This document shows, piece by piece, positions 1,554 through 5,646 of a stretch of DNA of 6,156 bases. Numbering within the stretch: position 1 is the first letter of the stretch; each line of letters starts with the position of its first letter. The notes below the pieces were generated by a model that was given only the letters and a program-made list of their open reading frames with translations, ran no database searches and had not been told where the DNA came from. This DNA comes from SAR92 clade bacterium (lineage in GTDB: Bacteria; Pseudomonadota; Gammaproteobacteria; Pseudomonadales; Porticoccaceae), in NCBI GenBank assembly GCA_018607545.1, contig JABBBF010000022.1:1-6156 (forward strand), given 5' to 3'. A program made the position numbers and the translations under genes.

Positions 1554-1609
1554 CTACAAGCTCTCCTCTACAAGCTCTCCTCTACAAGCTCCTTTCTACA
1601 GCTCTTCTA
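1554..1609. repeat. 14-bp tandem repeat, about four copies
   Basis: The unit CTACAAGCTCTCCT occurs exactly at 1554-1567 and 1568-1581, with two changes at 1582-1595 and in degenerate form from 1596 to about 1609. The array fills most of the gap between two convergent genes. Its last copy contains the stop codon and final codons of the - strand photolyase. Read on the - strand, each unit carries GAGCTTGTAG, like the gene's own GAGCTGTAG end, so the array looks like slippage duplication of the gene tail. It has no spacers, so it is not a CRISPR, and it has no T-run to mark a terminator. Confidence 0.85.
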
Positions 1610-3146
1610 TATTGGTCAGGCAGTACTCCGCTCTCAAAAGTAGCGACTGCTTGACCTCTGCATCCATTTTATTCCAGCTGCGATAGGCCATCGCGGTGCG
1701 CGGGTTTCTTGCAAAGCGCTCTCCATGACGATTCATAAAGTGCCAGTAGAGGCTGTTAAATGGGCAGGCCTTTTCTGTAAAGCGCTCTTTTACACTGTAA
1801 TGGCAGTCTTTACAGTAATCACTCATCTTGTTGATATAGCTACCGCTGGCTGCATAGGGCTTGGTGGCGATCAATCCGCCGTCGGCAAATTGACTCATAC
1901 CGCGGGTGTTGGGCATCTCGACCCATTCGATGGCGTCGATATAAATACCCAGATACCAGTTATCCATCTGATCGGGATCTATACCCGCCAGCATGGCAAA
2001 GTTGCCGGTGACCATTAGACGCTGGATATGGTGTGCGTAGGAGTAGTCCAGGGATTGATCGATCGCCTGTTTCATACAGGACATTTTGGTTTTTCCGGTC
2101 CAATAATACTCTGGCAGGTCAGCCTCTGCGCCCAGGGCATTGCGCTCGGCGTAGCCGGGCATATTGGCCCAGTACACCGCTCGCACATATTCCCGCCAAC
2201 CGATAATCTGCCGAATAAAACCCTCTACCTGGGCTATATCCACAGGGCTATTTGCTTCTTCAAAGCGCCTTATAGCGGCTTCGACAACCTCCCTTGGATG
2301 AAGAATTTTGCTATTTAGAGCAAAGGAGATTCGCGAGTGATAGAGGCTCCAGCGCTTATCGGTCTGCGCCGTCATGGCATCCTGGAAGCGGCCAAAATTT
2401 GGCAGGCAGTAGTCACAGAAAAATTGCAGTAATTCGAGTGACTGCTGACGATTGACCGGCCACAGCAAGGACTCTGTAGCAGTGCCTATGGTGGTGATCT
2501 TATGGGCTTGTATACGCTGTAAAATTTTACCCACCGGATTGGCAAATAGCAGCGGTTCTGGCAGTGCCGCTATATCGGTGGGTTTAAGTTTTTGGCGGTT
2601 TTCACCGTCGAAATTCCAGCGTCCACCCCGCGGCTGGGCACTGTCCATCAGCAGGTTAAAGCGGACGCGCATCTTTCGATAGAAGGATTCCATACGGTTG
2701 TGTTTATCGGGCTTTATATACTTACTGATCTCTTCCTTCGGCAGTAAAAAGTGCTCCGAATCACAGCAGCTGACACGAACTGAAGGCAGGGATATATTTT
2801 CCAGCTGTTGGGCAAGACGATATTCATCCGCGTGCTGGTAGTCGAAATTTTCGACGCCATACTGCTCGCACAGTTTGGCAATTAAATCACTGAGGTCTCT
2901 ATAGTCTGCGCTGTCGTCCAAAGTTAAATAATTAACCTGGTGGCCGGCGGATTGCAGTGCGCTGGCAAAGTTTTCCATCGCCGCAAAAAAGGCAGTTATT
3001 TTTTGAATGTGATGTTTAACGTAGCTGGTTTCCTGATGCAGTTCGGCTATTACATAGAGTACGCCGTTATCGACATGCCTATACCAGGAGTGGCTACTGT
3101 TAAGCTGGTCGCCAAGAATTAAGCGTAGGGTATGAAATTGCTGCAT
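1596..3146 (-). CDS. Iron-sulfur bacterial photolyase/cryptochrome (PhrB/CryB type, probable (6-4) photolyase)
   Basis: This 516-residue protein is a deoxyribodipyrimidine photolyase-related protein of the FeS-BCP group. It opens with the typical LRLILGDQLN segment of the N-terminal antenna domain, and the helical FAD domain follows. Four cysteines, C357, C445, C448 and C461, have exactly the spacing of the 4Fe-4S ligands of Agrobacterium PhrB (350, 438, 441, 454), a constant offset of 7. The pair H372-H373 in YAHHIQRLM matches the conserved active-site histidines of that enzyme. Relatives repair (6-4) photoproducts in DNA using light, with FAD and a ribityllumazine antenna; the Rhodobacter relative CryB also has regulatory effects. 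Length is normal for the family. The ATG at 3146 has no clear Shine-Dalgarno, but the next Met is about 56 codons in, past conserved sequence. It lies 62 bases after the DASH gene and is probably co-transcribed with it. Confidence 0.93.
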   Translation of the reverse strand: MQQFHTLRLILGDQLNSSHSWYRHVDNGVLYVIAELHQETSYVKHHIQKITAFFAAMENFASALQSAGHQVNYLTLDDSADYRDLSDLIAKLCEQYGVENFDYQHADEYRLAQQLENISLPSVRVSCCDSEHFLLPKEEISKYIKPDKHNRMESFYRKMRVRFNLLMDSAQPRGGRWNFDGENRQKLKPTDIAALPEPLLFANPVGKILQRIQAHKITTIGTATESLLWPVNRQQSLELLQFFCDYCLPNFGRFQDAMTAQTDKRWSLYHSRISFALNSKILHPREVVEAAIRRFEEANSPVDIAQVEGFIRQIIGWREYVRAVYWANMPGYAERNALGAEADLPEYYWTGKTKMSCMKQAIDQSLDYSYAHHIQRLMVTGNFAMLAGIDPDQMDNWYLGIYIDAIEWVEMPNTRGMSQFADGGLIATKPYAASGSYINKMSDYCKDCHYSVKERFTEKACPFNSLYWHFMNRHGERFARNPRTAMAYRSWNKMDAEVKQSLLLRAEYCLTNIEEL

Positions 3147-3208: not shown

Positions 3209-4561
3209 CTAAATAGGCCAGTCTACTATATCTCTTGAGTCGAGCTCTTCAAGGTGTTGATCGCCACCCCAGCGCTTTATAAACAAGCCTTTGGGATCGT
3301 AGATTTTAGTCTGTTTATCTAGATCAAAACGTCTGTGCCCCCGAGGGTCGGCGCCAACTCCGGCAAGATACTGCCAGTTTCCCCAATTAGAGGCGACGTC
3401 GTAGTCAACAAGCTGTTGCTCCATATACGCAGCACCATAGCGCCAGTCTAAATTTAACTCATGAACAAAGCAGCTGGCGACCAGCTGTCGGCCGCGATTT
3501 GACATATAGCCAGTGGCATTTAACTGTTTCATGCAGGCATTGACGATTGGGTAGGGGGTATTTCCCTGACACCATTTCTGGAATCGCTCCGCATAAAAGC
3601 TGGTTGTCGGGTTGTTGTTTTTAATGCCATTAAACTTAAAAATATTTGCTTTGTGGCTCTGTGCATACCATTGAAAATACTCTCGCCACAAAAGCTCAAA
3701 ATAAATCCAATAGGTTGAGTCATTGGCGTCTACTGCAGATTCATACTGATGCAGGTCGCAAATAATCTGTCGGGCAGAAATACTGCCATTACTCAGCCAG
3801 GGTGAAAACTTGGTCGAGAAATTCACTCCGTTACAATGTTCATCAAGTCCGTTGCGAGTTTCTTTATAAGTGCTCGCACTTTTACCTTGAAAGTAGTTTT
3901 GTAAATGTTGTCTGCCGGCCTGAGAACCACCTTTAAATAATTGATCGTCGCCAAGTTGAGAATAGAGAGTGTACTCTTTCCAGGCGGCTTGCCAATCTTT
4001 CTTAGGGATTAAACAGCTGGTTGGTAGCTGAGGTGGTTTTTCCAACGGTGCTCTTACAACAATATCTGAGACCATACGACGAAACTTAGAGAAACTGTCC
4101 GGTAGCTTATCCATGGCAAATGGCAGTTCTGATCTATCAAATAAGGTGTGAGTGTCCCTCTGGTTAAACTGGATCATGGCGTAACGTTTGCGCAGAGTAT
4201 TCCAGGTTTTTTGCTCATACTCTCCAGCATTGTGGCTGCGGTAAATATGGGAAATATTATATTGGGTGATATATTCGGGAATGGCGTCCGCAGGGGATTT
4301 AAATTCGATTATCAGCGGTTGTCCCTGTTCAGCCAGGGCCTTATCTAAATCGACTAGGCTTTCAAATAAAAACTGCTGGCGGATTGGTGATAACTTGCCG
4401 GGTGCCTTGTGGTCGTGAAAAGTAGATGTTGGGGCAACACAATAAATACAAATAAGTGTGTCGACTTCTGCTGCTGCTTTATTGAGGGCTGGGTTGTCGT
4501 CAATGCGCAGGTCATTGGTAAACCAAAATAGTCCCGTTTTTCTGATTCCATCCAATTGCAT
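3209..4561 (-). CDS. cry: Cryptochrome DASH / DASH-type photolyase
   Basis: This 450-residue protein is a DASH-class member of the photolyase/cryptochrome family, usual length for bacterial DASH proteins. The N-terminal Rossmann-like antenna domain starts with LFWFTNDLRIDDNPAL. The C-terminal FAD domain shows T250-K-F-S-P-W255, the DASH-typical GYMSNRGRQ stretch, and N392-W-G-N-W396-Q followed by AGVGADPRG; W396 corresponds to the flavin-proximal tryptophan of the electron chain. Family members bind FAD and a folate antenna and repair cyclobutane pyrimidine dimers, mainly in single-stranded DNA; some also act as light sensors. The ATG at 4561 is preferred over the TTG at 4567: GGGAG (4574-4570) is 8 bases from the ATG but only 2 from the TTG. 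It is the first gene of the leftward transcript, divergent from the DUF3429 operon. Confidence 0.95.
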   Translation of the reverse strand: MQLDGIRKTGLFWFTNDLRIDDNPALNKAAAEVDTLICIYCVAPTSTFHDHKAPGKLSPIRQQFLFESLVDLDKALAEQGQPLIIEFKSPADAIPEYITQYNISHIYRSHNAGEYEQKTWNTLRKRYAMIQFNQRDTHTLFDRSELPFAMDKLPDSFSKFRRMVSDIVVRAPLEKPPQLPTSCLIPKKDWQAAWKEYTLYSQLGDDQLFKGGSQAGRQHLQNYFQGKSASTYKETRNGLDEHCNGVNFSTKFSPWLSNGSISARQIICDLHQYESAVDANDSTYWIYFELLWREYFQWYAQSHKANIFKFNGIKNNNPTTSFYAERFQKWCQGNTPYPIVNACMKQLNATGYMSNRGRQLVASCFVHELNLDWRYGAAYMEQQLVDYDVASNWGNWQYLAGVGADPRGHRRFDLDKQTKIYDPKGLFIKRWGGDQHLEELDSRDIVDWPI

Positions 4562-4569
4562 GATCAATA

Positions 4570-4596: not shown

Positions 4597-4622
4597 TACG
4601 CCGAATATGCTATTTTGGATTG
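4597..4622 (-). promoter_or_regulatory. Predicted ECF-type promoter of the leftward photolyase operon
   Basis: On the - strand CAATCC (4622-4617) is followed after exactly 16 bases by CGTA (4600-4597). Transcription would start near 4590, giving a leader of about 30 bases before the DASH ATG at 4561. The layout resembles the TGATCC/CGTA promoters of ECF11 (RpoE-ChrR) sigma factors, which control photolyase genes in photo-oxidative stress; the first two -35 bases differ. The same element is repeated on the + strand in this gap, which raises confidence that it is functional. There is no competing good sigma70 pair. The sigma factor assignment is inference. Confidence 0.6.
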
Positions 4623-4659
4623 ACTGTCAGCTCAGTTGGGCGTTTAGCTGGCAATCCAA
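4615..4659. repeat. Inverted repeat TTGGATTG / CAATCCAA in the divergent gap
   Basis: TTGGATTG (4615-4622) and CAATCCAA (4652-4659) are perfect 8-base inverted repeats 29 bases apart, with a smaller nested pair CAGCT (4628-4632) / AGCTG (4646-4650). The arms coincide with the predicted -35 elements of the two divergent promoters, so the symmetry is best explained as two copies of one promoter facing apart. Both predicted transcripts start outside the repeat, so an RNA hairpin role is unlikely. Confidence 0.75.
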
Positions 4660-4677
4660 TCAAGTGTCTACCTCGTA
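4652..4677 (+). promoter_or_regulatory. Predicted ECF-type promoter of the DUF3429-DCC-SDR operon
   Basis: CAATCC (4652-4657) is followed after exactly 16 bases by CGTA (4674-4677). The spacing and both blocks equal those of the leftward promoter. A start near 4684 would leave a leader of about 25-28 bases before the ATG at 4711. It resembles ECF11 (RpoE-ChrR) promoters in layout, with an AT instead of GAT context in the -35. A TTGACT at 4620-4625 could be a sigma70 -35, but only poor -10 sequences (TTTAGC at 4643-4648) lie at the right distance. Confidence 0.6.
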
Positions 4678-4710: not shown

Positions 4711-5244
4711 ATGAATACACACAGCCCGGGACAGACTGCTTCCGGAATAATACGAGTATTGGGATTTGCTGGTTTGATCCCTTTTTTACTGCCAGTTCTG
4801 TTAATGATTCAAGGGGTATTGTCGGCCAAAGGGTTTCAGAGTGCGTCGCTGTTTGGTCTCTATGCACCCTATGTGTTTATTACTTACAGCGCGATTATTC
4901 TCAGCTTTTTATGCGGCGCGCTGTGGGGCAAAGCTGTCTCCGGAGATTGCCGTCAGTCAGCCAATGCAGTGTTGATATTCAGTAACCTGATTGCCCTCAG
5001 CGCCTGGAGCTGCACCCTGCTTATTTATTTGGCACCGATTATGTCGATCTTTGCGGTGTCAATGTTGCTGGCCGGGTTTTTAGCGGTGCTGTTCTGCGAA
5101 CGTGAGTTTGAGCAGATAAGAAATCAGCGCAACAGCGAAGAAGATTACCGGGACTCCAGCTATTGGAAAATGCGTCTGCAACTGACCGCGCTTGTTTCTC
5201 TGCTGCACCTGGTGGTGATCTACCTAATGATTCAGGAGTTCTAA
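4711..5244 (+). CDS. DUF3429 family membrane protein
   Basis: This 177-residue protein is predicted to be an inner membrane protein with five helices, at about 13-35, 50-72, 84-107, 108-128 and 157-174. Between helices 4 and 5 is a charged loop (about 129-156). The segment YSAIILSFLCGALWG (59-73) and the W152-K-M-R-L-Q-L-T stretch before the last helix match what I know of the DUF3429 family. No biochemical role is established. Cysteines at 68, 80, 101 and 129 lie in or at the ends of helices. The ATG at 4711 has only a weak purine-rich sequence (AAAGAT) in front. It is the first gene of the rightward operon and ends 3 bases before the DCC gene; this linkage to photolyases and a DCC protein suggests a part in the response to light or oxidative membrane stress, which is inference. 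Confidence 0.85.
   Translation: MNTHSPGQTASGIIRVLGFAGLIPFLLPVLLMIQGVLSAKGFQSASLFGLYAPYVFITYSAIILSFLCGALWGKAVSGDCRQSANAVLIFSNLIALSAWSCTLLIYLAPIMSIFAVSMLLAGFLAVLFCEREFEQIRNQRNSEEDYRDSSYWKMRLQLTALVSLLHLVVIYLMIQEF
5234..5238 (+). promoter_or_regulatory. Ribosome binding site supporting the GTG start of the DCC gene
   Basis: AGGAG, inside the last codons of the DUF3429 gene, lies 9 bases before GTG at 5248. No ATG is nearby, and the conserved FYDGGCPLC motif begins only six residues after the GTG, so this start is well supported. Confidence 0.7.
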
Positions 5245-5247
5245 TCT

Positions 5248-5646
5248 GTGACTGAGCTGATTATTTTTTACGATGGCGGCTGTCCACTCTGTGTTTCAGA
5301 GATGCGTCATCTATCCAGACTTGATGCAGAGGCTAAGATCAGTCTGGAAAATATCTACGCCGATGACTTTAGTGAGCGTTTTCCCCATATAGATCAGCAG
5401 CGCGCCGATCGCATACTTCACGGCCAACTCGCCTCTGGTGAAGTGATCTATGCGCTGGATGTGACCTACACTGCCTGGGCCCTGGTGGGCAAGCGTCACT
5501 GGGTAGCAATATTGCGTTGGCCGATCGTCAAGCAGATTGCTGATTATAGCTATCTGTTTTTTGCTAAATATCGCTCGACGATTTCCAGGCTGCTGACCGG
5601 TAGCGAGCGCTGTGAAATGTGTGTGATCAACAGAGACCAGTCATGA
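5248..5646 (+). CDS. DCC family (DUF393) thiol-disulfide oxidoreductase-like protein
   Basis: This 132-residue cytoplasmic protein has the defining DCC motif near its N-terminus: F7-Y-D-G-G-C12-P-L-C15, a thioredoxin-like CxxC following D9-G-G. Length is normal for the family. Members are predicted to have a thioredoxin-like fold and redox activity, but few have been studied and the substrate is unknown. A second CxxC, C122-E-M-C125, lies near the C-terminus. No signal peptide is seen. The start is GTG with a good AGGAG site. The gene begins 3 bases after the DUF3429 stop and overlaps the SDR start by ATGA (5643-5646), so the three genes are almost surely one translationally coupled operon. 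Co-induction with photolyases fits a role in handling oxidative damage, as inference. Confidence 0.92.
   Translation: MTELIIFYDGGCPLCVSEMRHLSRLDAEAKISLENIYADDFSERFPHIDQQRADRILHGQLASGEVIYALDVTYTAWALVGKRHWVAILRWPIVKQIADYSYLFFAKYRSTISRLLTGSERCEMCVINRDQS

What the first reader, a model, noticed from the sequence alone, without database searches (positions are those of the whole stretch)
4597..4677. Matched divergent promoters: CAATCC-N16-CGTA on both strands
The 149-base gap between the photolyase operon and the DUF3429 operon holds the same bipartite element twice, facing apart: CAATCC, exactly 16 bases, CGTA. Even the two bases after the first block (AA) are shared. Each -10-like block lies about 33-36 bases before its start codon. 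The layout is like ECF11 (RpoE-ChrR) promoters, TGATCC with CGTA, which control photolyases under singlet oxygen stress in Rhodobacter and Vibrio relatives. This would make both arms one regulon unit under a single sigma factor, with a variant -35 (CAATCC).
Basis: partly seen in the sequence, partly recalled or inferred. Interest (0 to 1): 0.7.

Follow-up and report, generated by a model that had tools for sequence, protein, structure and literature searches.

The report
Paired light-stress promoters beside photolyase genes
A marine bacterium related to the SAR92 group carries two back-to-back start signals of the kind used by a known singlet-oxygen stress switch (RpoE-ChrR), one for its light-driven DNA-repair genes and one for a poorly known membrane-protein operon; the switch is known, but its use for that second operon looks new.

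Summary
Both CAATCC-N16-CGTA elements lie in the 149-base gap, facing apart, and are the window's only [AG]TC[CT]-N16-CGTA matches. In 24 loci with the order DUF3429<- ->CRY-DASH (window included) the element occurs at spacing 16 on the photolyase side in 24 and on the DUF3429 side in 21; spacings 13-15 and 17-20 are empty. Spacing and CGTA equal the Pseudomonas syringae RpoE-ChrR consensus TGATCC-N16-CGTA (PMC5507510). The window's own genome is not held; of 22 held relatives with this gene order 19 encode ChrR, and the three without look like assembly gaps. The sigma gene's own promoter has the same design. I conclude: two ECF11 promoters. Their -35 differs in the DNA, not in the sigma: 0 of 45 arms have the TG that 13 of 19 sigma-gene promoters have, while the sigma's LPLGTVKSRVRL stretch is identical in 19 of 19. 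The new part is the recruitment of the DUF3429-DCC1-SDR operon: outside this clade a site lies upstream of DUF3429 in 3 of 27 ChrR-bearing genomes examined. New member of a known kind; no transcript data exist.

The parts
4597..4622 (-). ECF11-type promoter towards CRY-DASH and DPRP: -35 CAATCC (4617-4622), N16, -10 CGTA (4597-4600)
   Evidence: conserved at N16 in 24 of 24 loci
4652..4677 (+). ECF11-type promoter towards DUF3429-DCC1-SDR: -35 CAATCC (4652-4657), N16, -10 CGTA (4674-4677)
   Evidence: conserved at N16 in 21 of 24 loci
3209..4561 (-). DASH-family cryptochrome (an in-frame TTG lies at 4567)
   Evidence: TIGR02765 510.6 bits, cut-off 317.05
1596..3146 (-). Deoxyribodipyrimidine photolyase-related protein (DPRP), 62 bases after the cryptochrome stop; probably the same transcript
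   Evidence: PF04244 235 bits; same order in relatives; co-transcription inferred
4711..5244 (+). DUF3429 protein
   Evidence: PF11911 82.8 bits, cut-off 39.1
5248..5646 (+). DCC1-like thiol-disulfide oxidoreductase
   Evidence: PF04134 84.1 bits
5643..6156 (+). Short-chain dehydrogenase/reductase, cut by the window end
   Evidence: PF00106 27.3 bits; best NCBIfam match PRK09009 at 116.7 bits, under its cut-off of 330

Best explanation
The two elements are divergent promoters read by RNA polymerase carrying the ECF11-type sigma factor RpoE, which the zinc-binding anti-sigma ChrR holds inactive until singlet oxygen or a similar light-made stress releases it. One drives CRY-DASH plus DPRP (photorepair). 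The other drives DUF3429, a DCC1-like thiol-disulfide oxidoreductase and an SDR. Their -35 keeps (A/G)TC(C/T) but lacks the TG of TGATCC, so these arms are probably weaker than the sigma gene's own promoter. Shown by computation: the elements, their conservation, the fixed N16 spacing, and the sigma/ChrR pair with its matching promoter in relatives. Inferred: sigma binding, the inducing signal, weaker output, and the presence of the pair in the window's own genome.
For: Spacing 16 only, 24 of 24 and 21 of 24 loci, 21 with both arms, against about 0.2 loci per arm and at most one locus with both in 2000 rounds of shuffles. The same spacing and CGTA in the P. syringae consensus TGATCC-N16-CGTA, where sites without TG (katG TaATCt, 41-fold; tctD gcATCC, 7-fold) respond to sigma overexpression (PMC5507510 section 17), and in Shewanella RpoE2 sites (PMC4336711 passages). 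ChrR over cut-off in 19 of 22 held relatives with this gene order. The sigma of the closest relative matches R. sphaeroides RpoE at 121 bits, next chain 51; its ChrR matches only the two R. sphaeroides ChrR sequences. The same N16 element before rpoE-chrR in 20 of 20 readable clade members. In G001, the closest relative, CAATCC-N16-CGTA occurs three times in the genome and two of these are this pair.
Against: The window's own genome is not held, so its sigma/ChrR pair is inferred. Genome-wide, CAATCC-N16-CGTA is no commoner than its backward control over 8 relatives (19 against 19); TGATCC-N16-CGTA is modestly commoner (22 against 13), and MATCYRA-N14-CGTA likewise over 6 (34 against 24). The -35 departs from TGATCC in 45 of 45 arms. 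L027, L032 and L040 lack the DUF3429-side match. Of 47 genomes without the photolyase-side site 29 still have ChrR, so the link is not general across gammaproteobacteria. No transcript data.
Confidence: 0.85

Rival explanations
1. The elements are promoters of a different ECF sigma factor with the same -10 (CGTA) and a looser -35, not of the ChrR-linked one.
For: Arms and sigma-gene promoters differ at -35 positions 1-2 (0 of 45 against 13 of 19 with TG). Weakly similar second sigma factors exist in the relatives (up to 50.7 bits, 34% identity or less). Three genomes with the sites show no ChrR.
Against: In six clade members the sigma gene's own promoter is also TAATCC or CAATCC at N16. Only one sigma per genome is close to the ECF11 query; in G006 it is split over two contigs. 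The three ChrR gaps fit missing assembly. ECF11 in P. syringae tolerates non-TG -35s.
Confidence: 0.09
2. The elements are operators of a DNA-binding light regulator (for example a MerR/LitR-type protein) rather than promoters.
For: Light regulators of this kind control photolyases elsewhere (recalled); in Vibrio cholerae MerR and ChrR both act in the blue-light response (PMC5241685, abstract and passages).
Against: The element is directional and not palindromic, has one fixed spacing, faces each gene at promoter distance, and recurs before rpoE-chrR. I did not search the relatives for LitR genes.
Confidence: 0.04
3. Chance, or passive conservation of a short gap between close relatives.
For: CAATCC-N16-CGTA elsewhere in the relatives is at control level.
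Against: The gaps range from 128 to 246 bases by BLAST starts and differ in sequence, yet keep the element; shuffles almost never give both arms. In the three closest members the longest invariant block is CAATCCAAAA.
Confidence: 0.02

Closest known systems
RpoE-ChrR (PSPTO_1043/1042) promoters of Pseudomonas syringae DC3000 (PMC5507510)
   Same: CGTA -10, exactly 16 bases, ATCC-type -35; targets include the sigma operon, phrB and an SDR gene of the phrB locus
   Different: Consensus TGATCC; its photolyase operon has one promoter, aGATCC, with no DUF3429 arm listed in the section read
RpoE2-ChrR promoters of Shewanella oneidensis (PMC4336711, passages)
   Same: TGATC[CA]-N16-CGTA (spacing counted by me on the listed sites); targets include a DPRP gene with an SDR (SO_4169, SO_4170)
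   Different: TGATC kept before the DPRP gene; no DUF3429 or DCC1 in the listed targets
Blue-light ChrR-sigmaE response of Vibrio cholerae (PMC5241685, passages)
   Same: Cryptochrome and photolyase operons rise with blue light; ChrR and sigmaE control many genes
   Different: The paper writes the motif as TGATC-N18-CGTAT, one base longer than TGATCC-N16-CGTA; the four Vibrio loci held here show no such site before CRY-DASH

Membership tests
ECF11 (RpoE-ChrR) promoter | -10 CGTA | tested here: met
   Both arms
ECF11 (RpoE-ChrR) promoter | Spacer of 16 bases between TGATCC-type -35 and CGTA | tested here: met
   Both arms; 24 of 24 and 21 of 24 loci; consensus from PMC5507510
ECF11 (RpoE-ChrR) promoter | -35 TGATCC | tested here: inconclusive
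   ATCC kept, TG replaced by CA; 0 of 45 arms have TG, but P. syringae sites without TG respond
ECF11 (RpoE-ChrR) promoter | Sigma/ChrR pair encoded in the genome | tested here: inconclusive
   Own genome not held; present in 19 of 22 held relatives with this gene order
ECF11 (RpoE-ChrR) promoter | The sigma gene of the same clade is preceded by the same element | tested here: met
   20 of 20 readable clade members
ECF11 (RpoE-ChrR) promoter | Induction by singlet oxygen or light through release from ChrR | not testable with these tools
   No expression data

The most novel reading that the evidence does not exclude
The DUF3429-DCC1-SDR operon is a new effector arm of singlet-oxygen defence, recruited to ECF11 in a rhodopsin-bearing Porticoccaceae/SAR92 clade, and the divergent pair is detuned at the -35 (TG lost in cis while the sigma's recognition stretch is unchanged), so that photorepair and the membrane/thiol arm rise together but later or less than the sigma operon itself.
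Probability: 0.4. Interest if true: 0.5.

Novelty: new member of a known kind. Interest (0 to 1): 0.36.

Why it matters
It ties a marine clade whose members mostly carry a rhodopsin gene (25 of 26 genomes searched) to a defined singlet-oxygen switch. It gives DUF3429, named in 2 papers of one full-text search (listings only), a testable role in light-stress defence. The clade also offers a natural series of -35 variants facing an almost unchanged sigma, useful for asking how ECF promoters are tuned.

Tried and rejected
Rhodopsin as a further target: G008 has TGATCC-N16-CGTA 176 bases before a rhodopsin gene. Of 26 rhodopsin loci examined over up to 350 upstream bases, 2 had any [CT]-ended TCN-N16-CGTA match: this one and a weak one in G013. 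Dropped as clade-wide regulation.

DUF3429 as a general ECF11 target: 37 of 55 genomes outside the clade have DUF3429. Of the 30 loci returned, 27 are in ChrR-bearing genomes; 3 of these have a site upstream (G068 at 42 bases, G059 at 62, G023 at 262) and none of the 3 without ChrR does.

Helical phasing of the two arms: the gap between the -35 hexamers is 18-19 bases in 11 of 21 loci, 39 in 4, 32-34 in 4, 29 in the window and -2 in one. Too few independent lineages to claim phasing.

Viral relatives: one short fragment only (L081); not used. Structure prediction was not run, because sequence matches to solved RpoE and ChrR sufficed. I did not search for LitR genes.

Full report
What is there. 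The window encodes a beta-lactamase-family protein (281-1546 +), a DPRP photolyase-related protein (1596-3146 -), a DASH cryptochrome (3209-4561 -), DUF3429 (4711-5244 +), a DCC1-like thiol-disulfide oxidoreductase (5248-5646 +) and the start of an SDR (5643 onward, +). The 149-base gap between the cryptochrome and DUF3429 start codons holds CAATCC-N16-CGTA on both strands. Shuffled windows gave 0.07 matches on average and none of 200 gave two. No other [AG]TC[CT]-N16-CGTA occurs in the window.

Relatives. A scan with an alignment of 27 CRY-DASH proteins kept the best 80 of 584 genome loci. In 23 of the 80, DUF3429 lies divergent to CRY-DASH with DCC1 and SDR behind it; 12 of these 23 records are labelled Porticoccaceae or SAR92, the others Pseudomonadales, Cellvibrionales, HTCC2207, HTCC2143 or MOLA455. 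With the window they make the set of 24. Three more loci with a DUF3429 hit beside CRY-DASH were left out because they are more distant: L055 and L057 (Idiomarina) have a photolyase-side match only, and L080 has no [AG]TC[CT] match. In the 24 the element occurs at N16 on the photolyase side in 24 and on the DUF3429 side in 21; L027, L032 and L040 lack the latter. Spacings 13-15 and 17-20 are empty on both sides. Mononucleotide shuffles give about 0.2 loci per arm, and at most one locus with both in 2000 rounds. In the window and its two closest relatives CAATCCAAAA and CGTA are invariant on the photolyase side.

The sigma. P. syringae PSPTO_1043 has the consensus TGATCC-N16-CGTA; of the 18 promoters in its table several lack TG and still respond (PMC5507510, section 17 read). 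Shewanella RpoE2 sites have the same spacing (PMC4336711, passages). The V. cholerae paper writes TGATC-N18-CGTAT (PMC5241685, passages), which differs by one base. ChrR (TIGR02451) is over the cut-off in 8 of 8, 28 of 41 and 22 of 30 genomes; one genome (L006) is not held. Of these 79 genomes, 29 of the 32 with a photolyase-side site within 100 bases have ChrR, and 29 of the 47 without one do (table typed into; Fisher p 0.0045, not corrected for relatedness; a few contigs had under 300 upstream bases, and two loci with a site 174-185 bases away count as without). The three site-bearing genomes without ChrR are G016, G018 and G022. In G007 and G008 chrR lies beside the 3' end of hisF. In G016 hisF ends at base 7 of its contig, G018 has no hisF match and G022 only a 26% one, which fits missing assembly. 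The G001 sigma matches R. sphaeroides RpoE best (121 bits, next chain 51), and its ChrR matches only the two R. sphaeroides ChrR sequences.

Autoregulation and regulon. Of 24 clade genomes searched with the sigma, three have none and in one the contig is cut. In the other 20 the sigma gene is preceded by the N16 element: TGATC[CT] in 13, TAATCC in 4, CAATCC in 2, and AATCC with position 1 unread in G006. In G001, CAATCC-N16-CGTA occurs three times; two are this pair and the third lies inside a long reading frame. TGATCC-N16-CGTA occurs four times: before rpoE, before a 102-aa protein without a Pfam match, before DUF2878, and once inside a reading frame. A looser pattern adds a site before DUF2805 in G001 and G002. 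Single other relatives have sites before DUF1295, msrA, DUF4399 and, 172 bases away, a second photolyase. Three have a site before clpS. Against this, genome-wide totals are near the backward-pattern control for CAATCC (19 against 19 in 8 genomes) and modestly above it for TGATCC (22 against 13 in 8) and for the looser pattern (34 against 24 in 6). Many of these hits lie inside reading frames.

The -35. None of 45 arms has TG at positions 1-2, against 13 of 19 sigma-gene promoters (G006 left out). The sigma's stretch LPLGTVKSRVRL is identical in 19 of 19 clade sigmas, so the variation lies in the promoters. Weaker output is an inference from the P. syringae fold changes.

Recruitment. Outside the clade 37 of 55 genomes have DUF3429. 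Of the 30 loci returned, 27 lie in ChrR-bearing genomes, and 3 of these have a site upstream. So the DUF3429 arm is largely a clade feature, whereas photolyase and SDR genes are among the targets reported for P. syringae and Shewanella.

Verdict. Two ECF11 promoters of a known kind, with a variant -35, driving photorepair and a newly recruited operon. Papers: PMC5507510 (section 17 and passages), PMC4336711, PMC5241685 and PMC6852236 (passages); all others only as listings. Six searches listed no title or abstract start about this promoter pair; their lists were capped at 20, and full texts were not read.

Noticed in passing
Left of window position 1; G001:C1:120347-121045 and G002-G006: A rhodopsin gene (PF01036 in the G008 copy used as query) was matched in 25 of 26 genomes searched. 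By coordinates it lies next to the beta-lactamase-like gene of this cluster in G001 to G006, the six I worked out, so it probably begins just beyond the window's left end.
   Followed up: partly
L011 intergenic region (G005:C1:563221-563270): The two -35 elements abut or overlap in this relative, so two polymerases could hardly bind at once; in the other 20 two-armed loci they are 18 to 39 bases apart.
   Followed up: no
L133 (G008:C40:33014-33039): TGATCC-N16-CGTA lies 176 bases before a rhodopsin gene in one relative; not shared by the others examined.
   Followed up: yes
L094, L107, L120: AATCT[AG]ATGTAAGAT...CGTA at N16 lies before a ClpS-like gene in three relatives (Pfam checked for L094 only).
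   Followed up: no
L142, L130, L135: A small protein of about 102 aa without a Pfam match (L142 tested) has TGATCC-N16-CGTA 57-67 bases upstream in three relatives.
   Followed up: no
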